This document shows positions 377 to 50,466 of a DNA stretch of 64,000 nt, piece after piece. Under the pieces are notes generated by a model. It was not told the DNA's origin. It worked only from the letters and a program-made list of their open reading frames with translations, and made no database searches. Origin of the DNA: Clytia hemisphaerica (lineage: Eukaryota; Cnidaria; Hydrozoa; Leptothecata; Clytiidae); the NCBI GenBank assembly GCA_902728285.1, contig CACVBU010001044.1, forward strand, positions 934,039-998,038, in the 5' to 3' direction. Made by a program: the position numbers and the translations under genes. Each line of letters opens with the position of its first letter. Position 1 is the first letter of the stretch.

Positions 377-3286
377 AAGCTTCGATCAAAACACTCTAAA
401 TTATTTCGTTACCAATTGTACATAGTAATCTGTTTTGTAGATCACCAAGATCATTCATTTGTTTTACAAAATTTCTCACTCGTCGTCCGCGAAATTCAAC
501 CTTGCACAATTTGATTGGAAATCTAGAATTAGCGTGAAAATTAATCCACTCTGTACCTCTCTGTCAGAATTTTTTCTCTCACTTTTGAATGGTTTGACGA
601 AACTTTAAGAAGCTTCTTGACTTTTCTACAAATTCATTTTTGCAAATTGATTCGAAAAAATAAATTATAGATTTCCAAGCATGCAGCCACCCAAACCGCC
701 AAAATCCCGAATTCAATGAATTGCCATAAAATCTGAACTAGTTGGCAAAATGATCTGAATTTTTGCACAGTGATTAACTTATCTGATATACAATATGACT
801 CCATCAAATTTCCCTGAAAAGACCTATATCACGTGGTCGCGGGTTGGACTAACCGATTTCAAATTGTTGGTTTTAATGCCGCCATTATGACAAATTCCGA
901 GTAATAATGAATTTTTTTTTATTCTGCTACAAATTTTCATGACAAAAGCAAAATCCCAACTAAAGCCTTCTCTGACATATTTATGAAATAAGTTTCCTTC
1001 AAAAGAACTCCTTTCTTTTACTCCAAAGTGTGTAACAGTGATTAAGTTTAAAATTTTCTAATACGATTCCAAATTTCATAAAATCTCTGTTTTGTTTTGA
1101 GATGACACTTACATTGAATCTTTTCTACGCTCTTATTCGTGATTTGATTGGTACGTTTCATCCAATTTCCTGGATAGTTACCATGGCTACTTTTGTATTC
1201 ACCGAGTGTGCGCTAAATAGAATCAGGATTTGTCTTCACAGTGCAATAAACTCACGGAAGCAATACAGTCGATTCCATCTAGTGCTATATATGTCTATAA
1301 TTTGTCCTCTACTTTGGAACTCAGCTGGTATAGGGTGGCAATGTGATTTCTCGTTTTAACTAATTTCGTGAATTTTTACACAAGGTCGTTAGTTGAGGCC
1401 GGAAATAGAAAGTTAACTGTCAGCCGGGTACAACAAAGATATGACATTGAGCGTATGGCCTAATTGAAATCCAGCAAATTTCGACTGAGCCGCTGACAGC
1501 TCAGTACAGAGTTCTCAGAATGTAGCAACTTACTATCCCACAAATCACTGAACTGATCCACACTCTTATCAACTCGTTATTGTTCTGTTTCATTCATTCA
1601 TTATTTAAACTCTTTTCCGTGTTCCTTCACTCTAACAGCTCGGAGGCAGCCTGGACTGTCACTCACTGGTGGTGGCATAATTTTAAACTTTGTTTTTTTT
1701 TGGAACTTAGGCAAAATGGGTGCCGGGTATGTGCACAAGGGGCACAAAAACCATTAAAAAGAAAAATGAGTCTTTTTAAGGGTCCAACAAAAATCGAGTG
1801 AAAATCGAAAAAATTTCCAGACTCTTGCTTGACATATATTGCATGCTAGATTGAGGCTGAGTTTGCATCCTAACCTAAGAATACTGTAAGAAAAAAAAAC
1901 TCCTCAAAAAACCATTCTTATTTAAAAAAGCGTTTAGGCATAAACGATGTATATACGCCAGCCTGAAATATTTTTCAAATTGTAAATTTCTTTTTGTACC
2001 AACCATTTAACAGCATGTGAATACACTTCATTAATTCAAAAAGGTTCCAAAGCGGTCAAGTAATATAGGATATAGAACACATTGCCTAGCCATATTTCAG
2101 TACACATAAGCATAAATCAAGGGGTTATGCCTGGACGCTTTGAAAACTTGAGCATATACAGAGCTGGCCAAGAGTCCGACCAATGCAAAATAATTGAAAC
2201 GGTGTGAGGAGTAAATCACTCAGATAAATCTCTTGCAACATCCCAAAAAAGTAAACAAAAAAATACAAATGTCTCTTGAATTGGCAGGTGGGTGGGGTGG
2301 TATTTATGGGTGGTGAGGGCAAGCGTTTTTTAATACTTATTTGGCGTCCGAAGGGGTGTGCGTTTTTAGTACACACACAGTAAAATTGACTTCTAGGATT
2401 TGTAACGATGATGACATTGTTCAAACTGAAAAACTAAAATAACTTATGTTCAAATAATTGAAGAAAAAAAATGAAAAAATTACTAAATTTTAATTGACAA
2501 ATGAATTTAAGGCTAATTGAAAATCAAATACATGAAAGGAATTTAAGTCTGAGTAAATGAAATTCGTGAAAGAAAATCTAAGTCTAAAGTAAAGTTAAGT
2601 CAAAGCATGATGAGAAAAAGTATAAGTCCTAACTTAACCTAAAAAATGCAAAACAAAATGGCTGGCACACCTCTAAAAAGCTCACATTATATTTTTATCA
2701 TCTCCCTTTCTTCAATCATTCATGCTTTTATCAGTTGTAAGTAGTATATAGATTTGCCAATCAGAAGAAAACGTCACACGTACAAAGCCAAATGAATTGT
2801 TCAAATAAAAATGTGATATGACTTAAAAACTTTATTACTAGCAAGTAGCTTTCGCTATGATGCTCCCGATGACAGGCATTTGACAGTGATTGCTTGAAAT
2901 TCAGAAAAAGCGAAATGCCGTGTTTATTTTTGTCAGAAATAGTGATATTGCAAAGTATTCAATTTTTCTCAGCCATAGCCTGCACTAAACATGCCCCCTT
3001 TAATAGATACCTTATAAAGCTTGAATTACAAAGTTTTTCATGTTTTATGGCAGGGTCTTTGAATAATCTTCAGGAAATAATTAGAATGACTTTCTTCTCA
3101 AAAGCATTTTCTTTGAAACAACAATAACAAAAATAAAAATAACAAACATATCAAACCGTAGATGAAAATACGGTTCCTCATACGGCTTAACAATCTTGTA
3201 AACAACAGAACAGCAAGAAAGTTAGTTTTGTGAATTTTTTTCGGTGAACACGTTTTTTTGATTTTTTGGTGGTTGTTTTTTTGGAA
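377..3286. other. Intergenic, AT-rich, no supported gene
   Basis: Only short unsupported open frames occur here. At 1690-1800 there is a degenerate copy of the start of the CCCGGGGG-ended element seen complete at 37538-37982 (shared GGGTGCYGGGTATGTGC and related words). The last 130 bases before 3287 contain ATACGGCTTAAC at about 3180, which matches the CGGCTT word of the arrays and could belong to the promoter of the SF3 gene. Confidence 0.5.
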
Positions 3287-3361
3287 ATGAAACCTAAACG
3301 GCAGCTTGACAACACGACGGTGGCGAACGCTCTCCGAAGACACATTTTAACGACGTCGATG
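3287..3361 (+). CDS. Candidate first coding exon of the SF3 helicase gene
   Basis: An ATG in a favourable context (GGAAATGAAA) opens 25 codons beginning MKPKRQLDN, ending at a strong donor (ATG|GTGAGAATT) in phase 0. The acceptor at 8207 (AATCCTTAG) begins exon 2 in phase 0, and the joined frame stays open. If correct, the whole left array sits inside a 4.85-kb first intron. The alternative is initiation within exon 2 at the ATG at 8247. The evidence is the phase match and donor quality only. Confidence 0.45.
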
Positions 3362-6300
3362 GTGAGAATTATTTGTTTTAATTTTCTTTCTCCTTTAAAT
3401 GGTTCATTTGAAATTGTTTTGTAAATAAGAAACGAATGGCCGTAATTGACGTGCCATGAATCTTCTGAGCTGCCAGTCAATTTTCGTAATTTTGCTTTAC
3501 ATTAACGTGGGTGTGGATTACTCGTCAGCAGGCCTTTAATCTCTTTTTTAATGATTTTTTTAATCATAATGAGCTGAGCCCAAACTTATTGTAGTCTGTG
3601 TAACGACACTTTCGAAATTGAGACAGGGGAATATGCTTTTTTTATTATAGTCTGTGCGGTGGCCTTTAAAATTTAATTCAAGTCTACTTCGACCAGTGAA
3701 ATTTGGGTTAGACATATCTTTAACACTTTGGAGGTGTGGTTTTTTTGTCACCAGTTTTGACCACACCCCGATTGGATTCAAATTATAAGCCGAGAAATTA
3801 TAGGTCTACAATTAATGCCCTAGTATGCAGCGTCACTTTTGAAATTGAGACAGGGGTATATCAGCTTTTAAGTAGTCTGTGTAATGACCTTTTAAATTTT
3901 ATAAAAATCTCATGAATTCTCTTAAAGCCTTCTTATTTTGAGCCGTCATATATGAGTTAAGCCAGCCTCTTGACCGTCATGTGAGTGATTCTTTATGCCT
4001 GAAAAAGATTACAAAGCCGCTAAGCCTTCATCTCAGTCTGAGACGCTTTGCTAGTCTGTGCAATGTCACTTTAAGAGGATCAGAAAGGGAAATCTTTAAG
4101 AGTCTGTGTGGTTATTTCTGGAGAGGTTTATAAAATTTTCAAAAAAAATTTACTGAAAACAATAGAAAAAAAAACAATTAAAATTTTCATGGTCATTAGG
4201 GTGTGGTCATCTCAATAAATTCGTTTTCAATTTAAGACTTTTTGAAATAAAATAAAAGTTACGCCTCTTTTGGAGTTAAGCCGTAATTGAGTTAAGCCAG
4301 AACCTAAACCGACCCTTAAGCCGGGATTTTTGCCTGAGAGAGATTGATAAGCCGTTAAGCCGTCAATATGGTGGGTGGGGTGACGAGTCAAAGTACTTTC
4401 GTTTTCAAACTTAGAAATTTTCACATAAAACAGAATACTTCGTTCTTTATAAACAACCCTTAGTTTAACTGTTCTTATAAAAAGAATCTAGATTCTTATA
4501 AAAAAACTTTTTTCATAAAGGGACCACACCTTATTGGGACCCCGCCCATGCTTGTTCTTCATTTCTAAGCCATCACTTTCGATTTGGGACTTGTTAAATT
4601 TGATGAAAAAGGAACCACGCCTTTTCCACCGGATTCTAATGCAATTTTTCAGTTAAGCCGTAATTGACTAAGCCAGAACCTAAACCGACCCTTAAGCCGG
4701 GATTTTTGCCTGAGAGAGATTGGTAAGCCGCTAAGCCGTCAATTTGGTGGGTGGGATGACGAGTCAAAGTACTTTCGTTTTCAAACTTGGAAATTTTCAC
4801 ATAAAACAGAATACTTCGTTCTTTATAAACAACCCTTAGTTTAACTGTTCTTATAAAAAGAATCTAGATTCTTATAAAAAACTTTTTTCATAAAGGGACC
4901 ACACCTTATTGGGACCCCGCCCATGCTTGTTCTTCATTTCTAAGCCATCACTTTCGATTTGGGACTTGTTAAATTTGATGAAAAAGGAACCACGCCTTTT
5001 CCACCGGATTCTAATGCAATTTTTCAGTTAAGCCGTAATTGACTTAAGCCAGAACCTAAACCGACCCTTAAGCCGGGATTTTTGCCTGAGAGAGATTGGT
5101 AAGCCGTTAAGCCGTCAATTTGGTGGGTGGGATGACGAGTCAAAGTACTTTCGTTTTCAAACTTGGAAATTTTCACATAAAACAGAATACTTCGTTCTTT
5201 ATAAACAACCCTTAGTTTAACTGTTCTTATAAAAAGAATCTAGATTCTTATAAAAAAACTTTTTTCATAAAGGGACCACACCTTATTGGGACCCCGCCCA
5301 TGCTTGTTCTTCATTTCTAAGCCATCACTTTCGATTTGGGACTTGTTAAATTTGATGAAAAGGAACCACGCCTTTTTCCACCGGATTCTAATGCAATTTT
5401 TCAGTTAAGCCGTAATTGACTTAAGCCAGAACCTAAACCGACCCTTAAGCCGGGATTTTGCCTGAGAGAGATTGGTAAGCCGTTAAGCCGTCAATTGGTG
5501 GGTGGGATGACGAGTCAAAGTACTTTCGTTTTCAAACTTGGAAATTTTCACATAAAACAGAATACTTAGTTCTTTATAAACAACCCTTAGTTTAACTGTT
5601 CTTATAAAAAGAATCTAGATTCTTATAAAAAAACTTTTTTCATAAAGGGACCACACCTTATTGGGACCCCGCCCATGCTTGTTCTTCATTTCTAAGCCAT
5701 CACTTTCGATTTGGGACTTGTTAAATTTGATGAAAAAGGAACCACGCCTTTTCCACCGGATTCTAATGCAATTTTTCAGTTAAGCCGTAATTGACTTAAG
5801 CCAGAACCTAAACCGACCCTTAAGCCGGGATTTTTGCCTGAGAGAGATCGGTAAGCCGTTAAGCCGTCAATTTGGTGGGTGGGATGCTATGCTAGTCTGT
5901 GTAACATCACTTCTGAAATTGAGACAGGTGTATACTAGTTTTTAGATAGTCTGTGTAATGACCTTTTAAATCTATAAAAAATCTCATTAATTTTCTATAT
6001 TGGCCAATAGAATTGGGTTTCGATATTTTTTTTATCTGAAAAGGTGTGATTTATTCGTCAGCACTCTAGCCACGCCTATTTTGACCAAATTCTACTTGTT
6101 TTTTAAGACTATAGAAATTCTAGTCTGTGTAACGTCACTTTTGAAATTGAGACAGGGGTATATTAGTTTTTTACATAGTCTGTGTAATGACCTTTTAGAT
6201 CTATAAAAACTCTCATTAATTTCCTATATTGGCCAATAGAATTGGGTTTCGATATTTTTTTTATCTGAAAAGGTGTGATTTATTCGTCAGCACTCTAGCC

Positions 6301-9300
6301 ACGCCTATTTTGACTAAATTCTACTTGTTTTTTAAGACTAGAGAAATTCTAGTCTGTGTAACGTCACTTTTGAAATTGAGACAGGGGTATATTAGTTTTT
6401 ACATAGTCTGTGTAATGACCTTTTAGATCTATAAAAACTCTCATTAATTTCCTATATTGGCCAATAGAATTGGGGTTCAATATTTTTTGTGATCTGAAAA
6501 GGTGTGATTTATTCGTCAGCACTCTAGCCACGCCTATTTTGACTAAATTCTACTTGTTTTTAAGACTAGAGAAATTCTAGTCTGTGTAACGTCACTTTTG
6601 AAATTGAGACAGGGGTATATTATGTTTTTGACATAGTCTGTGTAATGACCTTTTAAATCTATAAAAACTCTCATTAATTTCCTATATTGGCCAATAGAAT
6701 TGGGGTTCAATATTTTTTGTGATCTGAAAAGGTGTGATTTATTCGTCAGCACTCTAGCCACGCCTATTTTGACTAAATTCTACCTGTTCTCTTATACAAG
6801 AGAAATTTTAAATTTTTGTCTCTTTAGAGAATGATACAGGTCATTAGGGTGTGGTCTTTTCGATAAGTTGATTCTTCGTTCTTTAAAAGCATAAGAATGG
6901 TACTGCTCTTAAAGAACGAAGTGTACTACTTTGGAAGAATTGTTCAAAATCAAAGAATACTTCGTTCTTTAAAAGCATACGAATGGCACTGTTCTTAAAG
7001 AACGAAGTATACTACTTTGGAAGAATTATTCAAAATCAAAGAATACTTCGTTCTTTAAAAGCATACGAATGGCACTGTTCTTAAAGAACGAAGTATACTA
7101 CTTTGGAAGAATTATTCAAAATCAAAGAATACTTCGTTCTTTAAAAGCATACGAATGGCACTGTTCTTAAAGAACGAAACTTCATTTCATTAAAGAAAGA
7201 TTTTATAATAAAGTAGCACACCCTTGTGGAGTCACGCCCATATTGTTTTTTTATCTTTGATTCATCCTTTTTGTTTTCGGACTTGTTCAGTTTAAGAAAG
7301 GGAATTCACACCTTTACCACCGTAGTTTAACGCCCTTTTTTAGTTAAGCCGTAATTGACCTTAAGCCAGAACCTAAACCGGTCGTTTAGCCGGATTTTTT
7401 GCCCGAGAGAGGTTGATAAGCCGGTAAGCCGAGAAAATGTGGCCCGAATGACTTCGCTAGTCTGTGTTACGTCACTTTTTAAATTGAGACAGGGTAATAT
7501 ACTTCCTTAATAGTCTGTGTGACGACCTCTTAAATTCTATAAAAAATCTCATTAATTTTCTATATTGGCCAATAGAATTGGGTTTCGATATTTTTTTTAT
7601 CTGAAAAGGTGTGATTATTCGTCAGCACTCTAGCCACGCCTATTTTGACTAAATTCTACTTGTTTTTTAAGACTAGAGAAATTCTAGTCTGTGTAACGTC
7701 ACTTTTGAAATTGAGACAGGGGTATATTATGTTTTTGACATAGTCTGTGTAATGACCTTTTAAATCTATAAAAACTCTCATTAATTTCCTATATTGGCCA
7801 ATAGAATTGGGGTTCAATATTTTTTGTGATCTGAAAAGGTGTGATTTATTCGTCAGCACTCTAGCCACGCCTATTTTGACTAAATTCTACTTGTTTTTTT
7901 AAGACTAGAGAAATTCTAGTCTGTGTAACGTCACTTTTGAAATTGAGACAGGGGTATAATATGTTTTTAAATAGTCTGTGTAATGACCTTTTAAATTTCA
8001 GCTTAAAGCTGCTCTAGTCTGTGTAACGTTCATTTAGGTGTAGGGAAATAAGTTTTTGATAGTCTGTGCAATGACCTGTTGATATAGGACGATTAGTCTT
8101 TGAATTATTCCTAGTCTACAATCTAGTCCTAATTGTGATTAGAGTGTGCTTTTTTAATAGTGTCTTGGTTCGTTCTTTAAGAACATCATTCATTATTTAA
8201 TCCTTAGATTGGTGACACAGATCAAGTTTTCCCGTTCCGTTCATTAATGCTGAGCAGCCAAACAGACTTAACATCAGTGCAGCGTAAGCTAGACGACGCC
8301 TTGGCTGCTCTTCCCGAAGTAAAGTTTTTTATTTCGAGCTGCACCGCCGTCTCCACTGTTCTAGAGAAAGCAGACGATTTCATTTTCGGTGTTGCGTACT
8401 TCTTGGTGGCGCACAAGTCAACCAGTTTGACGGAAACCAAGATCTATGATCTCGTTTATGATGTCGAGAAACGTGTACAACATACCAAGCACCCCATCAA
8501 AACAAGAAACACAAAAAAGATGGGGGAATCAGATGTGCTTTTGGCCAAACTAAAGCAAGTGGTAAAGGTATAAAAATTCAGCTTTGTTCGAGTTCATTGT
8601 TTTAATGCTAATACAAATTACATCGGTTTAACTTTGATATTGTTTATGATAGAAAAATAGTTAACCTAACCGTTAATACTCTTTCATTGCTTTAGGACTA
8701 CAACTCACAACTGGTCAAGGACAAAGTTCCAAAAGGATATGTTTCCACACGATTGGTATGTTGCTCACCGCAATTGGATCTAAAAATTCGAGAAGCATCA
8801 CGGCATCTTCAGGAGCAAGGATTTCGTCACCAACACATATCTTTGCTGGGTGAAACTCCAAAATCCTTCGTCCCTGAAAAGGAAACCTCCCAGGGCAAAA
8901 CCATTGACCAAGTAAGGCGAGTGATGATGAAATTGAACCATCGCATTCATAATGGCGCCATTTTTGAAAAGGAGCCAAACGGTATGTCATGAGATTTTCC
9001 TTTCGATTGTCATTTACTAGCTCAAACCTTAGAGGGGGGCTGTCTGCTTTTGCTTTGCTGTTTCTATCTTCAACTTTGCTGATTCTTCTATTTTCTCGTT
9101 CTTTAGCAACTTACGCTTTCAAATATCACTCTTCGATTGACGAATATCTCGAGACACTTTGTGCCAATCGAAAATTTGGCGAAAAGATTGACCTTCACAA
9201 AGAAAAGATCAGGTCGCACATGGAGGCAGAATTTGTTAAGGTATCAAATTATTGGATTTATCAAATCGTCTTTGAACCTAGATTTCAATTTTGAGAGTGT

Positions 9301-12300
9301 TATAAGATTTTGAATCGGTTTAATGGTTACTTCTGAAATAAAAAGCACTGTTTAATTTTTCTACTAGGTGTTACCTTCCATCGAGATGGACTACGACTAT
9401 ATAGAAGTTGATGGTGGTTGGTTCTTCAAATTTTCAACAAAGGGCTTTGTAAAGGGACCATTCCATGAAGAGGAGTTTGGGAAAATCGCCCCGAGGTGCT
9501 ACAAAAACTTCGATTGTAACGCTGAGTGTGATGGTGGATGCTTTGCAACGTCCGTGGAAAACAGTTTTCCCGAATTGAGAGAGCGCGTCAACTTTTTAAA
9601 CAAATTTTACCAGTGCTTATTGTGCTTCCAGTTCCCACACAAAGTACCACGAATCGTAACGAGTGGTAAGAATAGGTTTACGATTGGAGCGGCGTGAGTT
9701 GTGCCAACTTTCTTACTTTCTGAGGATAAACTGTATTTATTCAGGTATTTTTGATTCTGGGGAAATATTCGAGAGGGGATAATGTAATTTTGCATGTTTT
9801 GTTTATTCATAGTGTTTCGACTACAGCTCTCAGAATTTTTTTTCTTACCTTTCTTCAGGTAGCAATAACTCCGGAAAAACATCATGGGCCAACGTTCTTC
9901 TTGGGCTTATTCCACACAACAACGTTGCTATACTTAGCAAAGAGAAAACTTTTGGCTCAATGATGATCAATAAAAGAACAGAACTTTTGTTCATTGACGA
10001 GTGGGTCTATGAAACAATGGCTCCTGACCAGGTTAGTGTAAATTCTTTCCAATGACTGAATGAATACTAACTATTTTACATCTTACAGCTTATTTCTGTT
10101 TAGTTTTTGATATTAGATATGCTGAGGAGACCAAAGTATCTAGCAAAACCTGTCATTGTATGATAACGATTATGGAATTTAGTTATCTTTAACTTATTTT
10201 ACAGGTCAAATCTATTCTACAAGGTGGTTACTTCAGCCAAGCGGTGAAAAACCAAAAGCCCAGACGAACAAAAATGAATGGTGGCATCTACATCACCTGC
10301 CAGGCTATGCCAAAATTTGATTCTATCGACGTTGGTGCCGTGGACTGTCGTGTCCAAGAATTTAAAACACGGAAGCTGGTAACAAAGGACATGACGGCAC
10401 CAGCATGGATGCTGGAACACTCTTTTGAGTGTTTGATGTGGCTGGTAAACATGCTGGTGATCCATAGAGACCTCATAAATCCCGAAGAACTTTTTTATGA
10501 GCGACCCCATGACGTCAGTGCGGGCGCTAGACTGAATATAGATATGACGGAAGAAAAGGCAAGGCAATTGATAGAGTGCACCGGGTCTACGGACGAGGAA
10601 GATGGTGAAATTGAAACAGGTAAACTTTCTGCTTTCAGACGTATGGACTGTAGAAGTGCTCGTTACTTTTTTTTAAATTTTGACCAAATTAAGAGGAAGA
10701 GGGAGCCAAAAGTAAGGGTACAGGTTTAATACTGTCAAAACTAAAAACCATTTCAAATTATCTTCTTCTCTCTTGTAAGGCTACCATGTTCAAATGTTCA
10801 GTCCATTGGGGACCTTGTCCAATGATTCATCACCAGCGACAACACCATCTTCACAAGAAACAGCCTCACCGTTCTTTACAGGTGAGAGCTTTGCATGTTG
10901 CCTTATTGATCAATTTGATGACTGGTACTTTCTTTGATGGTGTTTGTCTTTGTGTAACCTTTTCGATAAGATTCAACTCACATTTTCTATTCATTTGACT
11001 GGAATTCTTTCCATTTTGCACCAAATTGAGACACCTAGTCTATATGCAATATTTTAGGATGAATCTGATCCAATTTTTTTCATCTCAAAGGTCAAGAAGG
11101 TATGGAGGAAAGAAGCAGTGCCGACGTTGCGAGCACTGTATTCGCCTTCAGTCCACCGCGCGCCCCTTTGACGCCAATGACACCGGTGACGCCGCTCCCA
11201 ACAACACCAGATTCCTTATGGGATGGTAAGACTACTTTTACGTCATATCTGAAATCTCTATTATTTGATTCTATGATGATCTTTTTTTCTAGCTTGTATT
11301 ATGTCAATACGTACTTTGTCATTCTATTGCATCTCATTTTACATTTCAGATGATGAGTACTACTCTTGTGACGAGAACAGAGATTCCAGGCTTGGAAATG
11401 GCGAAGAAAATGACAGTGACGGTAAGATTGTTTTCAATATTTGCTTTATTTCTTGGCTATTTAATCTGACAAGGTGCACCATTCTATGTCATTTTCCCAT
11501 ATGACAGTCTCATTTTCTTATTCTTCCTTTTCAAATTTTCATGTTTTATTTTCAGATTCTGAAATCCGTTTTGTGAAGTCGAATCGGACCAATCACGTTT
11601 GTATTTCAAGTGACGAGGAAGAACCTGTCAATCCAACAATAGGTATGTGTTTGTTTTAATACTGCAATTTTTGATGATTTAACCAGAGATTTGGGAAAAG
11701 AGGATAAGAATCGCCGCTGCCGCTCGCTGTTTTCTTATTGTTGGCCATTGAATTCAGCGTCGTTTGAAGTCGCTAGGCTAGGGAACAACTTGGCCGAGAA
11801 GTTGCAGTGAAAAAAATGGCGTTATGTGCAGTATTATAACAGTTCAAGAAAAACTGTCTGAATTTACTCCTTTGGAGGGGTTTCCTACTTATATAAACAA
11901 CTGAAAAACAAATAACGATCTTTTGGGGTTTCCACTGACAAAAAAATCTGCTGCTCCATGCTTTATTTTTTGAGAAAAAGATGGTGGAAGCAGGCATGCT
12001 AAAATTGGATGTGAAATGGGACCTTTTTATTTTTAGCTAGTTTGCCTTACTGGAAAGTCTTTCAGAGTCAAAATAAAGTGGTTTGGGTTGGCAAAAGGTT
12101 GTAGTTGACTAGCCTAGCTTTGGTTTTTATTGGCACCTTCTAGATCTTTTTGGCACATCCTTCAAAGATAGCTGAAAAATTATTTAAAAAGTGTATTTTT
12201 TGTTTGTTATGTTGAATAAAATTAATTATTTTTGTGTTGCAAACATAATTTTTATGGGTAGCAGTAAGGTTAATTAAATGACAACCTATAGCTTAGTTTT

Positions 12301-15300
12301 ACATGGCAAATCTTCAAACTTTCTTAGCATTTTGATTGAAGATGGGCAGATGGGCAAAATCGACTAAAAATGTTGTTTTTTTTTCCTAGTTTTAGATGAA
12401 AACATAATGTTATCCTAGCAAAACTTGCTTGATGGCAATGGACAATGGATTTTAGATTTGGTAAGTACGCTAAATTATCCTTGATGACTTTTTAGCTCCT
12501 ACTGAGGAAAAACATTTTTTTGGGGTTGAAATTTCAAGTTTTTGTATGTAACAGAAAATTGCTACCAAAGTTCTAATATTAATACTTGTGTAATTTTATG
12601 AAACTATGACTCTGACCGGTTTGGCTCTGACCGGTTAGTAGATTTGCTCTGACCGGTTAGTAGATTTGCTCTGACCAATTAGTAGATTGGCTCTGACCGG
12701 TTAGTAGATTGGCTCTGACCGGTTTAGATTGGCTCTGACCGGTTGATAGATTAGCTCTGACCGGTTAATAGATTGGCTCTGACCGGTTAGTAGATTGGCT
12801 CTGACCGGTTTAGATTGGCTCTGACTGGTTAATAGATTGGCTCTGACCGGTTAATACATTGGCTCTGACAGGTTAATAGATTGGCTCTGACCGGTTAATA
12901 GATTGGCTCTGACCGGTTAATAGATTGGCTCTGACAGGTTAATAGATTGGCTCTGACCGGTTAATAGATTTTCCAGTTATATAAGATTTATTTCACCGGT
13001 TTTTGTCTGTGGTCGGTGGAATTAAGATTTGTTGTTTGTGTTCTGTATTTGTTCATGAGAGCTTGCTGCAAAAATCCTAATTCCCATTTTCATTATTATA
13101 TACTTTCAGGTTAGTTACCATCATACTGCCCCAGTAACCTAGATCCATGAATTATTTTGTACCTTCACGTGGTTGGTATACAATGAGAATTGGCTTAAAA
13201 TTTGTCTGAATTTCTCACGTCCAAGGTTCAATATCTTTGCAAACACCAACAAATTCTGCTAATAAGATGGACAGGTGAAAAGCATGTTTAAACTCAAAGG
13301 AAACAACAATGGAATCTGATGTCATGGTTTGTTTGCAGTTGGATTAAGGTCTTTTTATCCCTGTTTCACCAGGATTTCCTGCTTGATTACGCAAATAGTC
13401 CCAAACAAGACACCAGAATGGGGCTAGACTACAATTACAAGATAATTGATATGAACCAACCATATAGATATAAAAAATGCTTTAGATAGAAATTTCAGTT
13501 TGGAATTGGAACACACTGGACTATTTTCATACATCACATTATATAATTATTCATCTTATGAAATACTCTTTTCTTGAGCATTGATTAACAGTCTGGTTAT
13601 ATTCATACTTTTTTTCTCTAAAATTTTATTTGAAAGGGTAAATTGCTTTTTATCTTAGAATCACACCTCTATTGGAATTAGTGAGCCCCCCCCCTAAATC
13701 CAAGAGTGACCGATTTTTCATATACTGTTTCACAATATATGTTTATTTTCCAAGGTGCTTTTAGTGAGGAAGGATCAAGTCAAAGTTTTTTTATTGTAAT
13801 TAATTTTCTTGCAATTATTTAAGTAACTTTTTGGAAGCAATAAGACAAATAAAATTGACATAACAAGAATCAAAAAAATAATCCAGAAATTTAACCAGTT
13901 TATTATTATTTTTTGTTATTACAACAAACGCGACCAAATAAAGATTTTTATATAATTTTTGTTTTTAATGTATGCTACTGTTTTGTATTATATTGCTATT
14001 ATTTTTCGCTTTGTTGTAAAAACTTCAAAAAGTTCTTACAAAAAAATTCATGATATTTTTGATTTCTTGTCATTGATATCATGAATTGCTATTGTTTTAG
14101 TCCTGTTTTTTTCTTTCCCTTCTCCTTCATTGTTTTAATATTCAACCTAGCTAGCTCTTTTTATATGATTGTCAAAACACTTTAGCCCGAGAAGTAATGA
14201 AAAACTATATTAGTTTTACCAGCTTCGTTTTGTGTTTGAATGCAATGAATTTTAAATTCTTTTTCACTAGTAATTATTTCTATTTCTACAATATAATCTG
14301 TGACATTGGTTCGAGCATTCCTTTGAGGAAAGTATTTTGGCTAAAACTGAAAGTTTTTGGCTCGACTAACACTGTATCCGCCCTGTCCAAAATGAAAAAT
14401 GCTTATAAAAAAATACCAAAATACCCGATATTAAAAATATTTTTATTTCACTTTCGATATCAACCACGGCTGCCATTTTTTGTTTGTACTTCTAGTCTTG
14501 TGCGCATAGTATAATCAAGCGCTCCGATTGGTTCAGAACTAAAACAATCGATCGGGCGCAGATATTTCAATAGAACAAAAGGTTCCCTAGCCTATATTTC
14601 TATAGCTGAATAGCGCAATTCTTATCCTCTTTTCCCAAATCTCTGATTTAACCTTCCCATCGTCCGCCTAGGATTATTTGATGTAAATAAAATGGGAATT
14701 TTCTTTTGTTTTAGTTGAATCCAAGAGTGACATTCGATACATTGAAACGATACTACCGTCAGACATATCAACGTTGGACTTATCTGACATCATTAATTTT
14801 TCTGGTGAGAATACTATGAAATCCTATAGCATATATTTGCATCAGGTTTAAAAAGCGTTTCCAATGATACATTTGCTTTTAGATTTAGTGTACACTTGAC
14901 ATTAACTAGTAACTTTTCTTTTGTTTTCCCACACTTATTCCCCATCATTTTCCCAATTTTACAGGTGTTTTGTATGCCTTAGAAACGATGATTTAGTTTC
15001 TTTCTTTCTTCACTTTTTTAGAAACTGAAAATCGCAAACGGTCAATGGAAGCAACGATTGATGAGATTGCAACTCCAAAAATAAAGAGAATTGCAACTTT
15101 GGACTATTTGACAGAATATGACCTACCATCAGAATTTGGTAAGCAATTTACTACTTGATAAAAACTTTTCAGAATTTGTTTATGTATGATTGCAGTGATC
15201 TGATGGTTATTTACTTGACTTTTAGTTTTAAAGCATTTTATATTTACATTTTTCAGAAAGGAGATCTGTCACCACGTCGGTAACAAATCAAAGCAGAGAA

Positions 15301-15764
15301 ATCTTTCAGCTGGTAACACCTGGTAAGTGTTTTTTTCTTTTCTTTTTAACAATTTCAGTTGACTGGACTCGTCCATTTTGCCATCAAACTACTTGTGGTG
15401 ATATGGTATGTTGTCATCGTGACGTAGTCACTGACATCCTTTTAAACTTGGCTATTTTTCAATTTCAGCAAAGACGTCTTCACCAGTCCTTCCCTTGAGA
15501 GAAATTAACCCAGGCACGCCCTTGCTCCAGTTATCCACGCCAGGTTAGTTTGCCATTCATGAAATCAAGCTTTTGTTCAATTTTCTAATCAAACATTGCA
15601 ATGAATTTGACATACTGAATATTTTTCGGTCAACTTACTGGATTTACAGAAAAATCTGAATCTTATCTTTCCTTTTGTCTTCAGATAAGAATCATCGTGC
15701 GTTATACAACACAATCAAAAAGACGTGTGGAGCAACACCTAACGATTTGTTACTGAACTCTTAG
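3287..15764 (+). CDS. Superfamily 3 (SF3) helicase with long S/T-P-rich acidic tail, 16-exon gene
   Basis: Modelled exons: 3287-3361, 8208-8567, 8696-8981, 9107-9240, 9368-9665, 9859-10031, 10205-10619, 10780-10881, 11091-11225, 11350-11421, 11556-11642, 14715-14804, 15022-15138, 15257-15322, 15469-15543, 15685-15764. All junctions are GT-AG with matching phases, giving about 854 codons without an internal stop. Walker A GSNNSGKT (residues 385-392) is split by an intron. Walker B is TELLFIDEW (425-433). Motif C is IYITCQAMP (470-478), with Q where Asn is usual. A basic B'-like hairpin lies at 457-465, and an arginine-finger candidate follows near 490. Four Cys (329, 335, 339, 343) just before the core could bind zinc. 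No HUH nuclease motif is visible. In SF3 families this core forms a ring that unwinds viral or plasmid origins. Residues 580-854 are low-complexity with many S/T-P sites. Exon 1 is the least certain part. Viral, plasmid-like or domesticated origin cannot be decided here. Confidence 0.85.
3590..8080. repeat. Left tandem-repeat array of the SF3 element
   Basis: Three interleaved unit types occur. (1) Units carrying AGTCTGTGTAACGTCAC and AAATTGAGACAGG, spaced about 229 bp, at about 3591, 4052, 5893, 6122, 6351, 6579, 7448, 7687 and 7917. (2) Four near-identical units of about 376 bp at 4260-5885, each with clustered TTAAGCCG words, the phrase CCTAAACCGACCCTTAAGCC, and a TTCGTTCTTTATAA/TTCTTATAAA pair. 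(3) Four units of about 86 bp at 6870-7185 centred on a palindrome, TTCGTTCTTTAA with TTAAAGAACGAA. Type 2 is homologous to the right array in reverse complement, so the arrays are inverted relative to each other. Confidence 0.9.
6870..7185. repeat. Four ~86-bp units, each a TTCGTTCTTTAA/TTAAAGAACGAA palindrome
   Basis: Each unit has a 12-bp arm, a spacer of roughly 22 bases containing GAATGG, the inverted arm, then a short AT-rich tail. The same arms occur once per unit in the right array and singly near 8166 (GGTTCGTTCTTTAAG), just before exon 2. A hairpin or dimeric protein-binding site is the simplest reading. The function is inferred. Confidence 0.75.
11684..14645. mobile_element. hAT-like non-autonomous DNA element inside intron 11 of the SF3 gene
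   Basis: The left end CAGAGATTTGGGAAAAGAGG and its reverse complement at 14618-14645 form terminal inverted repeats of about 28 bp starting CAGAG. A 7-bp direct repeat ATTTAAC flanks both ends (11677-11683 and 14646-14652). GGCTAGGGAAC also recurs subterminally in inverted orientation. CAGNG ends fit the hAT superfamily, although that family normally makes 8-bp duplications. No transposase frame was found in the 2962 bp. A GACCGGTT minisatellite lies inside. Confidence 0.75.
12600..12975. repeat. Minisatellite, unit GGCTCTGACCGGTTAATAGATT
   Basis: About sixteen tandem units of 17-22 bp with minor variants (GACAGG, GACTGG, GACCAATT) fill this part of the hAT-like element in intron 11. Length varies because several units lack the TAGTA/TAATA segment. 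Confidence 0.9.
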
Positions 15765-16401
15765 TGGACTCTTAACCGTTGCGTTTGATTTAATTTTTTA
15801 TAGTTTGAAAAATTCAGAATAATTATATTTTCTGTAAAATTAGGAGAAATTTATAACAATGTACTGTTGCGTTTTTGTCTATTTTCATGTGGGGAAAATG
15901 GTAATATTTCTTTTTAGTTACGTTTTGAATGCATTTCACTTCGAATATTCCTTCTACTGGTCTTCAATATAATATATTTGAGTTTTGTAGATCGCATAGA
16001 ATTTTAGTTTTAATTTATCGTAGGTCAATACTTTGTGTTTTAATGCCTAGTTTGTGCTAGGAAAAAATGAAAGAAAAATGAAAAAGATTTGACTCGGCTG
16101 CTGAATCAGCTGAGAATAATAGAATAAACTTCTTTGTTCTCATTGTTTTCTCTAGTTTTTTTAAAGAACGCAATAGATGTTTCTTTCATTTGATTCGTCC
16201 TTTAAAAATGAAATGTAATGCTGTAACAATACTCGTTCCTAGTAGCTGCCACGCCCTTTAGAAAGACAATAGATTCAAACAACAGGGAAACAATAGTAGT
16301 TTTATGATATTTTCTTCTTGAATAAAATGGACAAAAAGATTTAGTAGACTTGAAAAATTTAATGCTATCTAACAATGAAGAACGACTTTAAAGACTAGTG
16401 G
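15765..16401. other. Convergent 3' region between the SF3 gene and the 151-aa gene
   Basis: AATAAA at about 16123 is a candidate poly(A) signal for the SF3 transcript. A TTTAAAGAACG word occurs near 16160, again resembling the array palindrome arm. No coding region is supported. Confidence 0.45.
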
Positions 16402-17005
16402 TCAATGGAGGTCTTGTCTTACATCACGTGACCTACCATCGAAATAGAACTGCCTTTTGTGAAATAACGAATAATAAAATCGGTCATGCTTTTTTATTTC
16501 CATCGATTCGAAGAGGCTCTGAATTTGGTTTTTTCTGGCATTTGTCGTCCGTTTGTCGTCTTTTAACGTGTGATACGACGAAATGATCCATTCCGCTGTA
16601 ACAATTGGAGATACGCCATTACCTGAACAATGAAAAACAAAAAAATTTACTTTAAAGTGACAGTATAAAGAATACTGCAAAACAACCATCTCTCATTGAC
16701 ACTATTCAAAATTGTTCACTGAATAATTCTTTGACGTAAAGTGCAGGTGGTTCAGTAATAAGTTACTTACCAAGTAGAAACCAGAACATGGCGGCGGTAT
16801 CTCGATCCCCCAAAGGTCTCTTAAAAAACATCAAACGATATTTCTCAGGCCAAAGAGATATCTTGGGCAACAGATCATCAGAAATTAATTCAAATAATTC
16901 CTTTCGTATTTTTGTGAATTTTTCTTTGCTCGAAGATTGAACGTAAGCTGTGAAGCCGTCTATCTTTTCTTTAGTTATAGAATCAAATATTGTAACTCGC
17001 TCCAT
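16402..17005 (-). CDS. Unidentified 151-residue protein of the SF3 element, two exons
   Basis: Exons 17005-16771 and 16622-16402 join in phase 1 (LLG|GTAAGT ... TTCAG|GTAATGG). The frame is clean from ATG to stop, about 151 codons beginning MERVTIFDSITKE. It is mixed charged and aromatic, with no signal peptide or membrane segment, ending in a basic/aromatic stretch (FHKRQFYFDGRSRD). I recognise no family. It is convergent with the SF3 gene, and its 5' end faces the right array about 100 bp away, so array sequence probably overlaps its promoter. A role in replication or packaging would be a guess from context. Confidence 0.65.
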
Positions 17006-17099
17006 GATAGAATTGAGATGAAAATTGATATTGTCAGTCTTCCAAGACGCCTATTTATTTAGTTCTGAAAATTTACCAAATAAAAAGGAGTCACCTGGG

Positions 17100-20000
17100 A
17101 AAATCTTTTGGATCAAGTGCTTATAAAGAACGAAATATTCTATGGCTTTAAATAATTACTTTATGCTAATATTCTTCGTTCTTTAAAAACGTTTCTATAA
17201 GGAGTTCTTATAAAGAACGAAGTATTCCATTAAAAAATTGTCAAGTTTGAAAGCGAAAGTACTTTGACTCGTCATTCCAACCATCAATATGACGGCTTAA
17301 CGGCTTACTAACCCCTCTCAGGCAAAAAATCCGGCTTAAGGCTCGGTTTAGGTTCAGGCTTAAATTAAATCCGGCTTAACTAAAAAATGGGCGTTTGGGT
17401 GGTAGAGAGGCGTTAACTCATTTTTTTTTTTTTTCAAATTGAACAAGTCCCAAAACGAAAGTGGTGACTTCAAACGAATTGGGCGTTGTCTAAAATAGGC
17501 GTGGCCCCTTTATTAGAAACTATTTTCTTTATTGGAAACATGTTTCGTTCTTTAAAAAGATTCATAAGATGTTCTTATAAAGAACGAAATATTCTTTCTT
17601 ATGTGGAAACTTCTAAGTTTGAAAACGAAAGTATATTTGACTCGTCAATCCAACCATCAAAATGACGGCTTAACGGCTTACTAACCCCTCTCAGGCAAAA
17701 ATCCGGCTTAAGGGTCGGTTTAGGTTCAGGCTTAAATCAAACCCGGCTTAACTAAAAAATGGGCGTTTGGGTGGTAGAGAGGCGTTAACTCATTTTATTT
17801 TTTTCAAATTGAACAAGTCCCAAAACGAAAGTGGTAACTTCAAACGAATTGGGCGTTGTCTAAAATAGGCGTGGCCCCTTTATTAGAAACTATTTTCTTT
17901 ATTGAAATCAATTTTGAAAACGAAAGTACTTTGAATTGTCATTCCAACCATCAAAATGACGGCTTAACGGCTTACCAACCCTTTTCAGGCAAAAAATCCG
18001 GCTTAAGGGTCGGTTTAGGTTCAGGCTTAAATCAAACCCGGCTTAACTAAAAAATGGGCGTTTGGGTGGTAGAGAGGCGTTAACTCATTTTTTTTTTTTC
18101 AAATTGAACAAGTCCCAAAACGAAAGTGGTGACTTCAAACGAATTGGGCGTTGTCTAAAATAGGCGTGGCCCCTTTATTAGAAACTATTTTCTTTATTGG
18201 AAACATGTTTCGTTCTTTAAAAAGATTCATAAGATGTTCTTATAAAGAACGAAATATTCTTTCTTATGTGGAAACTTCTAAGTTTGAAAACGAAAGTATA
18301 TTTGACTCGTCAATCCAACCATCAAAATGACGGCTTAACGGCTTACTAACCCCTCTCAGGCAAAAAATCCGGCTTAAGGGTCGGTTTAGGTTCAGGCTTA
18401 AATCAAACCCGGCTTAACTAAAAAATGGGCGTTTGGGTGGTAGAGAGGCGTTAACTCATTTTTTTTTTTTCAAATTGAACAAGTCCCAAAACGAAAGTGG
18501 TGACTTCAAACGAATTGGGCGTTGTCTAAAATAGGCGTGGCCCCTTTATTAGAAACTATTTTCTTTATTGGAAACATGTTTCGTTCTTTAAAAAGATTCA
18601 TAAGATGTTCTTATAAAGAACGAAATATTCTTTCTTATGTGGAAACTTCTAAGTTTGAAAACGAAAGTATATTTGACTCGTCAATCCAACCATCAAAATG
18701 ACGGCTTAACGGCTTACTAACCCCTCTCAGGCAAAAAATCCGGCTTAAGGGTCGGTTTAGGTTCAGGCTTAAATCAAACCCGGCTTAACTAAAAAATGGG
18801 CGTTTGGGTGGTAGAGAGGCGTTAACTCATTTTTTTTTTTTCAAATTGAACAAGTCCCAAAACGAAAGTGGTGACTTCAAACGAATTGGGCGTTGTCTAA
18901 AATAGGCGTGGCCCCTTTATTAGAAACTATTTTCTTTATTGGAAACATGTTTCGTTCTTTAAAAAGATTCATAAGATGTTCTTATAAAGAACGAAATATT
19001 CTTTCTTATGTGGAAACTTCTAAGTTTGAAAACGAAAGTATATTTGACTCGTCAATCCAACCATCAAAATGACGGCTTAACGGCTTACTAACCCCTCTCA
19101 GGCAAAAAATCCGGCTTAAGGGTCGGTTTAGGTTCAGGCTTAAATCAAACCCGGCTTAACTAAAAAATGGGCGTTTGGGTGGTAGAGAGGCGTTAACTCA
19201 TTTTTTTTTTTTCAAATTGAACAAGTCCCAAAACGAAAGTGGTGACTTCAAACGAATTGGGCGTTGTCTAAAATAGGCGTGGCCCCTTTATTAGAAACTA
19301 TTTTCTTTATTGGAAACATGTTTCGTTCTTTAAAAAGATTCATAAGATGTTCTTATAAAGAACGAAATATTCTTTCTTATGTGGAAACTTCTAAGTTTGA
19401 AAACGAAAGTATATTTGACTCGTCAATCCAACCATCAAAATGACGGCTTAACGGCTTACTAACCCCTCTCAGGCAAAAAATCCGGCTTAAGGGTCGGTTT
19501 AGGTTCAGGCTTAAATCAAACCCGGCTTAACTAAAAAATGGGCGTTTGGGTGGTAGAGAGGCGTTAACTCATTTTTTTTTTTTCAAATTGAACAAGTCCC
19601 AAAACGAAAGTGGTGACTTCAAACGAATTGGGCGTTGTCTAAAATAGGCGTGGCCCCTTTATTAGAAACTATTTTCTTTATTGGAAACATGTTTCGTTCT
19701 TTAAAAAGATTCATAAGATGTTCTTATAAAGAACGAAATATTCTTTCTTATGTGGAAACTTCTAAGTTTGAAAACGAAAGTATATTTGACTCGTCAATCC
19801 AACCATCAAAATGACGGCTTAACGGCTTACTAACCCCTCTCAGGCAAAAAATCCGGCTTAAGGGTCGGTTTAGGTTCAGGCTTAAATCAAACCCGGCTTA
19901 ACTAAAAAATGGGCGTTTGGGTGGTAGAGAGGCGTTAACTCATTTTATTTTTTTCAAATTGAACAAGTCCCAAAACGAAAGTGGTAACTTCAAACGAATT

Positions 20001-21080
20001 GGGCGTTGTCTAAAATAGGCGTGGCCCCTTTATTAGAAACTATTTTCTTTATTGAAATCAATTTTGAAAACGAAAGTACTTTGAATTGTCATTCCAACCA
20101 TCAAAATGACGGCTTAACGGCTTACCAACCCTTTTCAGGCAAAAAATCCGGCTTAAGGGTCGGTTTAGGTTCAGGCTTAAATCAAACCCGGCTTAACTAA
20201 AAAATGGGCGTTTGGGTGGTAGAGAGGCGTTAACTCATTTTTTTTTTTTCAAATTGAACAAGTCCCAAAACGAAGTGGTGACTTCAAACGAATTGGGCGT
20301 TGTCTAAAATAGGCGTGGCCCCTTTATTAGAAACTATTTTCTTTATTGGAAACATGTTTCGTTCTTTAAAAAGATTCATAAGATGTTCTTATAAAGAACG
20401 AAATATTCTTTCTTATGTGGAAACTTCTAAGTTTGAAAACGAAAGTATATTTGACTCGTCAATCCAACCATCAAAATGACGGCTTAACGGCTTACTAACC
20501 CCTCTCAGGCAAAAAATCCGGCTTAAGGGTCGGTTTAGGTTCAGGCTTAAATCAAACCGGCTTAACTAAAAAATGGGCGTTTGGGTGGTAGAGAGGCGTT
20601 AACTCATTTTTTTTTTTTCAAATTGAACAAGTCCCAAAACGAAAGTGGTGACTTCAAACGAATTGGGCGTTGTCTAAAATAGGCGTGGCCCCTTTATTAG
20701 AAACTATTTTCTTTATTGGAAACATGTTTCGTTCTTTAAAAAGATTCATAAGATGTTCTTATAAAGAACGAAATATTCTTTCTTATGTGGAAACTTCTAA
20801 GTTTGAAAACGAAAGTATATTTGACTCGTCAATCCAACCATCAAAATGACGGCTTAACGGCTTACTAACCCCTCTCAGGCAAAAAATCCGGCTTAAGGGT
20901 CGGTTTAGGTTCAGGCTTAAATCAAACCCGGCTTAACTAAAAAATGGGCGTTTGGGTGGTAGAGAGGCGTTAACTCATTTTTTTTTTTTCAAATTGAACA
21001 AGTCCCAAAACGAAAGTGGTGACTTCAAACGAATTGGGCGTTGTCTAAAATAGGCGTGGCCCCTTTATTAGAAACTATTT
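17100..21080. repeat. Right tandem-repeat array of the SF3 element (~371-bp unit)
   Basis: The anchor GACGGCTTAACGGCTTA recurs at 17291, 17664, 17958, 18329, 18700, 19071, 19442, 19813, 20108, 20478 and 20848. Most spacings are 370-373 bp, with two short units of 294-295 bp. Each unit carries four to six CGGCTTA/CCGGCTTAA words, GGGTCGGTTTAGG, and the TTCGTTCTTTAA ... TATAAAGAACGAA palindrome. The short units lack the palindrome block. The unit is homologous, reversed, to the 376-bp unit of the left array (shared CCTAAACCGACCCTTAAGCC, GGGACTTGTT and TGCCTGAGAG phrases). Confidence 0.95.
17650..19950. repeat. Higher-order block of six units, repeated from about 19800
   Basis: The short unit at 17664-17957 and its neighbours recur exactly 2150 bp downstream (19813-20107). 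One short plus five full units sum to 2149 bp, the same spacing. This indicates a block duplication rather than unit-by-unit growth. Confidence 0.75.
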
Positions 21081-21320
21081 TCTTTATTGAAGGTTTAGCA
21101 TACGGATATAATTCCATTGACGGTTCAGGCCCAGAGGGGTAAATTAACTTTAAAAAATGAACAAAAATTTTCAAAGTTTGAAATCGAAAGTGTTTACTAA
21201 ATTTTTTTATCTCCAAAATGTGACGGCTTTACGGCTTATAAGCTCTTTCAAGCAAATTATACGGCTTAACCCTCGGTTTAGCATACGGATATAATTCCAT
21301 TGACGGTTTAAGTCCATTGT
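21081..21320. repeat. Degenerate array edge with duplicated GCATACGGATATAATTCCAT
   Basis: GTTTAGCATACGGATATAAT occurs at about 21093 and again near 21279, each followed by TTCCATTGACGGTT. Between them is GACGGCTTTACGGCTTATAA, a diverged form of the array anchor. This looks like an older, worn edge of the right array. Confidence 0.7.
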
Positions 21321-21463
21321 GAGGCGTGAATTTGGCCTTGTACCAGCTATCTTAAAAAGGTTCAAACAATGAAATGAGAGTCATCTTTTTAAAAGTTACT
21401 TTTTATTTACAATATTTACAGAAAATTTCACTTCAGTTCCTTCTTCAACTTCAATCGTTGCCT

Positions 21464-21852
21464 TTATGTTGATATTATGTTGTTTTCTTGGCGGAGTTTT
21501 GTTTGTTTCGGCTTTTTCTTCTTGTCGTCATCGCTGATTTCGATAACTTCTTTGATGGGTTTTTGTTGTGAGTTTCGCTGTTCCTCAATAGCTGGTAAAA
21601 AATGAAGAAGAATAGACAAGAATTTTTCATATGAAGCTCTGAAAATAATCTTCGTCTTGTTATTAAATGGCTGATTTTTGCTATCCCCTCTTTTCAGTTT
21701 TAGCATAAAATTATCAAATTGAATGGAGGTTTAATTGTTAAAAATGGATAAAACTCACCTCTTAATTGATCCACAAGAGTGCCTTGTGAAAAGCATAGCA
21801 CGTCTCTTTCGAAAAGTGCTGAAATGGCACGTTGATGTTGACTATTTGACAT
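21464..21852 (-). CDS. Unidentified ~105-residue protein with a SUMO-interaction-like motif, two exons
   Basis: Exon 21852-21759 begins MSNSQHQRAISALFERD and ends in phase 1 at AGAG|GTGAGT. The best-fitting acceptor gives exon 21687-21464 and a frame of about 105 residues. An alternative acceptor nearby cannot be excluded. The C-terminus contains KEVIEISDDDKKKK. The VIEIS core followed by acidic residues matches the consensus of SUMO-interacting motifs, with an adjacent basic stretch that could be a nuclear signal. It lies just outside the right array, and upstream are CGGCTT words at 22018-22060. No family is recognised. Confidence 0.5.
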
Positions 21853-22017
21853 ATTGCTGGTTATTCTATTGGTGATATTCTTGCTGTTTGATAATCTGGG
21901 CGTTGTATTTATAGTCCAGATTAGACAATACCTATTACAATCTACTATACAAAACTATTGTTCCTATAGTGACAAATTAATGGCCATACCACTGCCTTAT
22001 CGATTCCCCTAACACCA

Positions 22018-22062
22018 GCCCACAGCTTAACCCACGGCTTATCTCACGGCTAAGCCGTTCAC
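22018..22062. promoter_or_regulatory. Cluster of CGGCTT/AAGCCG words upstream of the small minus gene
   Basis: CAGCTTAACCC, ACGGCTTATC and ACGGCTAAGCCG occur within 45 bp, about 170 bp upstream of the ATG at 21852. They match the dominant word of both arrays and lie beyond the array proper, so they may be a regulatory or terminal binding cluster. This is inferred from word similarity only. Confidence 0.45.
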
Positions 22063-22328
22063 TTTTTATAAGAAATTAAAATTTCAAACAGAAATTTGAA
22101 ACGGAAAAAATTTCTTCAATCAGCGCAAAGCAAAGTAGAGTCTAAAATGTGTTTCAATTATTTGGACATTTAAAGTTAGTGGTTCAAATAGAAAATATTC
22201 AAAAACTTGGAATTTTTTTCATGAGAATTATTTTAAACACGATTTTCCTAGAAAAAATTGGTTCTAGTTTCACCTCAAATTCACATAAAATTTTAGAATC
22301 AATATACAATACTTTGAAATTTATCACT

Positions 22329-24270: not shown

Positions 24271-24954
24271 TTTATAGTGAAAAGTTGATCGAAAAAAGGC
24301 GAAATTGCACGAAACTATGATAATTTTTCCTTTGTGAGGGAAGTAAAATTTGGAGTAATCACTAAATGTTATGTTTGAAAATTGATAGCACAATATCACG
24401 TTCTTGAACTTCAAAGTTATGTAATTATCTAAAGTTATGTAAAGCTCGCTAATGGTAAAACTCCATCCTACAACAATTTTTCTATGTGCAAACTCGTTAA
24501 AAAAATTGTAGAAAAAAGCATTCCTATCTGAAGTCTGTAATTTTGTCATAAAAACAGAACACGTTCTGGAAATTATAAATCATTACCATCTATAATTATA
24601 TTTTGCAAAGGAACTGACTGGGTCATCCCATGAGGATCACTGAGTGTCATTTGACTCTCTTAATCAAGATACCTATTCAGAACAATGTGTTCCCCTTTGT
24701 TCAATCATAATGAATCACTGTGTTCCTTTCAACGTTGAAAACAATAGATTGCTAAATATTTTCAAAAGGTATTGTGAGTTCCGAAAAAATTGTTCCCAAA
24801 AGGATAAATGGTAGCCTCTAATTTTTCAAACTTAAATTAAAGAGACCTTCCTCAAGGGAAAAAGGAACTCTTTTATTCGAAAACGTATATAAACATGAAT
24901 TTATAATTTCCAAGTTCTATATTTTTGATAAAATTTTCAGCTAAGTTGTTGTCT
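24271..24954. other. No supported gene
   Basis: AT-rich sequence with an open minus frame directly upstream of the recombinase pseudogene (24280-24549) that has no recognisable motif. No element terminus could be identified here. Confidence 0.35.
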
Positions 24955-50385: not shown

Positions 50386-50466
50386 TTAGATTAAAAATAA
50401 AAACCTTTAACAATTTGACTTTCATTATATACTTTCAGAAATAAATTTCATCTTTACAAAAACAAA

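What the first reader, a model, noticed from the sequence alone, without database searches (positions are those of the whole stretch)
3287..22062. Large SF3-helicase element bounded by kilobase-scale inverted repeat arrays
Seen: an intact intron-containing gene with the full SF3 signature (GSNNSGKT, TELLFIDEW, IYITCQAMP), two small co-located genes, and two long arrays of related units in opposite orientation. Known: SF3 helicases drive origin unwinding in small DNA viruses and some plasmids and bind repeated sites. Inference: this is a self-replicating or formerly replicating mobile DNA, or an endogenised DNA virus, that has gained host-style introns. I know of no described animal element with this layout.
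Basis: partly seen in the sequence, partly recalled or inferred. Interest (0 to 1): 0.92.

Follow-up and report, generated by a model that had tools for sequence, protein, structure and literature searches.

The report
Jellyfish mobile element with virus-type helicase
A 21.7-kilobase mobile DNA element in a jellyfish genome carries a DNA-unwinding enzyme of the type used by small DNA viruses, long repeat arrays that look like replication start sites, and a recombinase-like gene near one end, so it may be a self-copying, integrating plasmid-like parasite of animal chromosomes.

Summary
Comparison of copies at unrelated loci places the element at window 3154-24892 (21.7 kb). Seven loci share the right end and four junctions the left end, with no target duplication beyond 'AA'. 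On contig C472 the right end of one copy runs straight into the left end of another. The helicase belongs to a family of at least 277 proteins whose core has the SF3 fold; scans of IMG/VR and GTDB contigs found no relative. Best reading: a plasmid-like integrating element that replicates from the arrays and inserts by site-specific recombination. Replication, DNA binding and recombinase chemistry are inferred; profile searches did not confirm the recombinase. Hydra's DENSOV_HM may be a relative.

The parts
3154..24892 (+). whole mobile element (21,739 bp, including a nested 3-kb transposon)
   Evidence: common left end in window, C883, C472 and at the C472 junction; common right end in window, C207, C472, C49, C594, C882, C232
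3154..3174 (+). left terminus; short hairpin ACCGTA...TACGGT
   Evidence: hairpin read from the sequence
3287..3361 (+). presumed first coding exon of the helicase gene (inferred, phase-0 join to 8208)
   Evidence: splice signals only, no transcript evidence
3580..8080 (+). left-only repeats, ~230-bp unit with AGTCTGTGYAA
4261..5886 (+). left iteron-like array, ~376-bp unit
6874..7178 (+). 86-bp repeats forming hairpins of TTCGTTCTTTA/TAAAGAACGAA
8208..15763 (+). SF3 helicase gene: exons near 8208-8567, 8697-8980, 9107-9241, 9369-9665, 9857-10031, 10205-10620, 10779-10886, 11090-11224, 11349-11420, 11555-11641, 14708-14805, 15012-15138 and further short exons to a stop near 15763
   Evidence: spliced relatives P0006 and P0020; exons after 15101 read from the sequence only
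9858..10620 (+). SF3 core: Walker A GSNNSGKT, Walker B LLFIDEW, motif C IYITCQ
   Evidence: motifs in window exons and relatives; fold from a relative
11685..14644 (.). nested transposon in a helicase intron, terminal inverted repeats, 9-bp duplication GATTTAACC at 11676-11684 and 14645-14653; absent from the C472 copy
16402..17005 (-). small gene A, two exons, about 150 aa
   Evidence: 96-97% identical exons in C472; partial in C244; with a stop in C594
17150..21333 (-). right iteron-like array, ~371-bp unit
21464..21852 (-). small gene B, two exons, about 88 aa
   Evidence: present in C207, C472 and, with a stop in one piece, C49
22453..24270 (-). tyrosine-recombinase-like gene (several exons, start position approximate), frame-shifted once near 22.9 kb in this copy
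   Evidence: pieces of it next to each of the 7 right ends; not confirmed by profile libraries
24875..24892 (+). right terminus ...ATTCGAAAACGTATATAA

Best explanation
A plasmid-like integrating mobile element of animal chromosomes. Step 1 (inferred): the helicase, or its N-terminal domain, binds the spaced TAAGCC repeats of the two arrays. Step 2 (fold shown on a relative, action inferred): its SF3 core assembles as a hexamer and unwinds the origin, so that the host machinery copies the element, perhaps as a circle or head-to-tail concatemer. Step 3 (products shown, enzyme inferred): a tyrosine-recombinase-like protein joins the right and left ends to each other and to target DNA with only a 2-bp AA overlap, giving insertions without target duplication and head-to-tail tandems.
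For: Common ends at unrelated loci: 7 right ends, and 4 left ends counting the junction. Head-to-tail junction on C472: flank-to-right-end alignment score 338 against a shuffle maximum of 54. Window and C207 98.9% identical over a 2.5-kb helicase stretch and 99.3% over 21340-24892. Each of the 7 right ends has pieces of the recombinase-like gene and at least one array core beside it. The C472 copy (16.6 kb) shows left end, arrays, outer helicase exons, genes A and B, recombinase-like gene and right end; its helicase core was not fetched, but P0006 is on a contig of that length. Relative P0087's core matches D5/E5, SaPI5, AAV Rep, B19 NS1 and E1 structures. 66 of 88 relatives match DUF5906 and 44 of 88 PPV_E1_C at E<=0.01. 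The array core with six hexamers at the same positions is 137/160 identical between left and right consensus, the rest of the unit 140/225. 277 helicase relatives.
Against: The recombinase assignment rests on invariant R, R, H, Y residues, among many other invariant columns in five mostly close copies, read against a motif I recall; Pfam, PDB, PHROGs and NCBIfam gave no support. The gene is broken in several copies, this one included. The Clytia proteins closest to the window (P0006, P0020) and the window exons themselves match neither DUF5906 nor PPV_E1_C; the fold was modelled on a relative 30% identical to P0020. No binding, replication or circle was observed. One tandem junction could come from unequal recombination. 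Of four left flanks aligned to the right end, three (window 47, C472 outer 26, C883 45) lie within their shuffles. A ~50% identical recombinase-like gene near C680 hints that modules can be exchanged. Copy number is a lower bound from one genome search.
Confidence: 0.64

Rival explanations
1. An endogenised virus or remnant of a papilloma/parvovirus-like lineage that lost its capsid and became a repeat family, like Repbase DENSOV_HM or PIVE.
For: Helicase type. [quoted passage not shown]
Against: No relative in IMG/VR at the tool's sensitivity. No coat gene recognised in the ORFs scanned. Many introns in the helicase gene.
Confidence: 0.22
2. A large Crypton-type transposon in which the recombinase-like gene does all the moving and the helicase and arrays are captured passengers.
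For: No inverted copies found at the ends and no target duplication; pieces of the recombinase-like gene at each of the 7 right ends.
Against: Helicase exons and arrays lie together also in a diverged copy (C712: exons 42-71% identical, one with a stop, arrays about 2.4 kb away), which suggests a kept association.
Confidence: 0.15
3. A foldback-type transposon: arrays are terminal inverted repeats used by a DDE transposase.
For: Inverted array layout.
Against: Arrays are not at the ends and there is no target duplication; no transposase was recognised in the ORFs scanned.
Confidence: 0.03
4. A host gene cluster with satellite arrays, duplicated segmentally.
For: Introns and open helicase exons.
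Against: Flanks change at the same two points in different contigs.
Confidence: 0.02

Closest known systems
DENSOV_HM (Hydra) and PIVE (Schmidtea), Repbase integrated virus-like elements; PEVE of Girardia (PMC3198968, passages read)
   Same: animal repeats or elements called virus-like; the Figure 5B legend names Parvo_NS1 and PPV_E1_C domains among the elements shown; [quoted passage not shown] PEVE reported as not found integrated, with inverted repeats (the latter recalled)
   Different: their sequences could not be fetched; no recombinase-like gene, iteron arrays or head-to-tail junction is described in the passages read
Crypton elements (recalled)
   Same: recombinase gene, no terminal inverted repeats, no target duplication
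   Different: Cryptons are a few kb with a recombinase gene and no helicase or arrays; the recombinase assignment here is unconfirmed
Polinton-like viruses (PMC12220804: search listing and start of abstract only; that some carry tyrosine recombinase and SF3 helicase is recalled)
   Same: integrated elements of 14-40 kb
   Different: viral elements of protists; no capsid gene recognised here
Papillomavirus E1, polyomavirus large T, parvovirus NS1
   Same: SF3 core fold (E1 and parvovirus Rep/NS1 among the matches, large T not in the rows shown) and weak Pfam E1 matches in relatives
   Different: low sequence identity; element is chromosomal, with introns and arrays
Foldback transposons such as Galileo or sea-urchin TU (recalled)
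   Same: long inverted arrays of tandem repeats
   Different: arrays internal, no target duplication

Membership tests
SF3 helicase | Walker A, Walker B and motif C in order in one short core | tested here: met
   window exons and relatives aligned
SF3 helicase | SF3 AAA+ fold | tested here: met
   on relative P0087, not on the window protein: residues 230-560 at pLDDT about 95; the 50 rows listed are viral, phage or SaPI replication helicases that I know as SF3-type
SF3 helicase | ATP-driven unwinding, hexamer | not testable with these tools
   none
E1/large T/NS1 type replication protein | N-terminal origin-binding (HUH-derived) domain before the helicase | tested here: inconclusive
   a shared N-terminal domain exists (27% identity, E 9e-10) with predicted beta-alpha-beta-beta-alpha-beta order at moderate confidence; no Pfam match there
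Crypton | tyrosine recombinase catalytic domain | tested here: inconclusive
   R14, R111, H138, Y147 invariant in 5 copies, the most distant 55% identical to the first; no profile support
Crypton | no terminal inverted repeats, no target duplication | tested here: met
Crypton | small element with a recombinase gene only (recalled) | tested here: not met
   21.7 kb with helicase, arrays and two more genes
Polinton / polinton-like virus | major capsid protein and packaging ATPase | tested here: inconclusive
   none recognised in the ORF pieces scanned; not every ORF was scanned
Foldback transposon | repeat arrays form the termini | tested here: not met
   ends mapped at 3154 and 24892, arrays internal
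DENSOV_HM / PIVE type virus-like repeat | sequence relation to those Repbase entries | not testable with these tools
   Repbase sequences not available

The most novel reading that the evidence does not exclude
A new class of eukaryotic mobile element: an integrating, capsid-less animal plasmid that replicates itself from chromosomal iteron arrays with an E1-type helicase, inserts by tyrosine recombination, and is spread widely among animals. It could represent the non-viral pool from which, or into which, papillomavirus-type replication proteins passed.
Probability: 0.3. Interest if true: 0.95.

Novelty: new variant of a known kind. Interest (0 to 1): 0.8.

Why it matters
PMC5618006 (abstract and sections 13, 18, 23, 24 read) searched the sequenced biosphere for relatives of papillomavirus domains. 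It judged the metazoan hits to the E1 DNA-binding superfamily to be misannotations or contaminants, found one E1-helicase hit in a planarian virus-like element, and suggested a marine ancestor for papillomaviruses. A multi-copy animal family with an E1-like SF3 helicase, in an element with defined ends and candidate origins, would make that origin question testable in a laboratory animal (Clytia). It would also suggest that animal chromosomes host self-replicating, plasmid-like DNA.

Tried and rejected
Foldback and DDE reading: disfavoured because the arrays are internal and there is no target duplication. Single-copy host gene: rejected. Relatives in IMG/VR or GTDB contigs: none (these scans look only for places sharing short conserved peptides); none in phage records for the recombinase-like protein. 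PDB sequence searches with two helicase pieces and with the A4 and A8 profiles gave no SF3 chain at E<=10; only the fold comparison did. The first AlphaFold job (P0006 first) was poor, mean pLDDT 43.9, and was not used. Small genes A and B: no convincing Pfam, NCBIfam or PDB relative in the pieces tried (SPOC_AIPP2 at E 0.0014 is below its cut-off). C883 tandem: suggested by a diverged recombinase-like gene beside the left end, but the flank alignment is within shuffles, so not claimed. A palindrome at 25343-25509 sharing CGGCTTAA was looked at as a possible mini-copy and dropped. Literature: no paper describing this combination was seen in searches (listings; two papers opened in part); the library lacks most subscription papers and Repbase. 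The planarian PEVE paper is not held.

Full report
Setting. The window is C722:934039-998038 of a 417-Mb, 951-contig assembly. So the host is that hydrozoan jellyfish.

The helicase gene. Open pieces at 8208-10620 and beyond carry Walker A (GSNNSGKT), Walker B (LLFIDEW) and motif C (IYITCQ). P0006 and P0020 are spliced Clytia proteins. Compared exon by exon, the window pieces from 9107 to 10620 are 96-100% identical to P0006 and P0020, except one P0006 exon that lacks a part (70%). Later P0020 stretches match the window at 80-100%, with one that runs into an intron at 56%. The joins from 8924 to about 15101 are thus supported. A first exon at 3287-3361 with a phase-0 join to 8208 is plausible from splice signals only; if real, the left arrays lie in intron 1. 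I kept exons apart in all searches because a virus-like origin could not be excluded.

The arrays. The left 376-bp array (4261-5886) and the right 371-bp array (17150-21333) are related only in inverted orientation (37 of 37 pairs). TAAGCCG occurs 24 times on the + strand in 3-8 kb and 46 times on the - strand in 17-22 kb, against one reverse-oriented hit in those two regions and five elsewhere. Within the unit, the first 160 columns hold five TAAGCC and one TAAACC at the same positions in both arrays. These are 86% identical between the left and right unit consensus (137/160); the other 225 columns are 62% identical (140/225). This is what conserved binding sites would look like. It is not a binding test.

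Ends and copies. The single answered genome search found the array unit in 19 contigs (103 matches, lower bound). I fetched stretches from 12 of the 18 contigs other than the window's. Left end: the window, C883 and C472 enter the same sequence (ACCGTAGATGAAAATACGGTTCC) from unrelated flanks; a fourth, slightly diverged left end is at the C472 junction. A partial 44-bp match on C680 was not counted. Right end: the window, C207, C49, C594, C882, C232 and the C472 junction (which differs by one base in the last nine) all stop at ...GTATATAA, window 24892; the C594 end is more diverged (74% over the last 100 bp). Only AA is shared between the left and right sides of insertions, so there is no target duplication of the usual kind. 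In C207 the match to the window starts at 3894, after about 0.4 kb of unrelated sequence and a run of N, so that copy's left end was not seen. C207 is otherwise 98.9% identical over a 2.5-kb helicase stretch and 99.3% over 21340-24892.

Head-to-tail junction. On C472 the right end of a 16.6-kb copy (3580461-3597084) continues directly into the left end of a second copy. Alignment score of the junction flank to the right end is 338 against a shuffle maximum of 54. The flanks outside the other three left ends gave 47 (window), 26 (C472 outer) and 45 (C883), within their shuffles, although a diverged recombinase-like gene sits beside the C883 left end.

The missed gene. A reverse-strand gene from about 24270 to 22453 lies near the right end, and pieces of it lie beside each of the 7 right ends. 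The pieces tested are open in C207 and C232. C472 has stops in the zinc-finger-like piece, C882 one stop in the middle piece, C594 several, C49 has lost the core, and the window copy has one frame shift. Five copies, the most distant 55% identical to the first, keep R14, R111, H138 and Y147, among many other invariant columns. I recall this pattern as that of tyrosine recombinases. Pfam, PDB, PHROGs and NCBIfam searches did not confirm it. The insertion products (common ends, no duplication, end-to-end junction) fit such an enzyme.

Linkage. An array core and pieces of the recombinase-like gene occur together at all 7 right ends. Helicase exons with arrays occur at the window, C207, C472, C883, C680, C594 (2.75 Mb) and, diverged, C712. 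No helicase exon was found by tblastn in the fetched stretches of C781, C244 (which has part of gene A) and C464 (which has a weak DNA match to one helicase exon), nor at C594 (2.18 Mb), where it would be expected. For C49, C882 and C232 the fetched stretch ended before or within the place where the helicase would lie. C680 has a recombinase-like gene about 50% identical, in the expected orientation about 10.7 kb downstream of the helicase exons.

Interpretation. The best reading is an integrating element with its own replication protein and origin-like arrays and no recognised capsid gene. Shown: ends, copies, one junction, gene set, SF3 motifs and the fold of a relative. Inferred: origin binding, replication, circles, recombinase chemistry. 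[quoted passage not shown] PMC5618006 (sections 13, 18, 23, 24) judged metazoan hits to the E1 DNA-binding superfamily to be contaminants or misannotations in 2017.

Noticed in passing
window 11685-14644: Nested ~3-kb transposon in a helicase intron with terminal inverted repeats and a 9-bp duplication GATTTAACC; it holds the 22-bp tandem array at 12621-12970 and is absent from the C472 copy.
   Followed up: partly
window 40277-43190: Reverse transcriptase ORFs resembling a DIRS-type retroelement with a SAP-like start (by eye).
   Followed up: no
window 44536-44934: Reverse-strand fragment resembling a gypsy-type reverse transcriptase (by eye).
   Followed up: no
window 50419-51798: 459-aa open frame without introns matching cytochrome P450 (Pfam E 3.4e-10).
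   Followed up: no
window 25569-25994: Rhodopsin-type GPCR exon (Pfam 7tm_1) beyond the right end; a receptor-like fragment by eye at 1042-1359 beyond the left end.
   Followed up: no
window 25343-25509 and 29713-30332: Near-perfect palindromes (97% and 86%), probably small inverted-repeat transposons.
   Followed up: partly
window 58607-59053: 34-bp tandem array, 12.9 copies.
   Followed up: no
L049 1197-8777 (C232): Diverged subfamily with 15 array cores between the recombinase-like gene and the interior; the right flank starts CGGTAG like a left end, a possible second junction.
   Followed up: partly
L041 1922-3304 (C680): Recombinase-like gene about 50% identical, downstream of a 97% identical helicase copy: possible module exchange.
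   Followed up: partly
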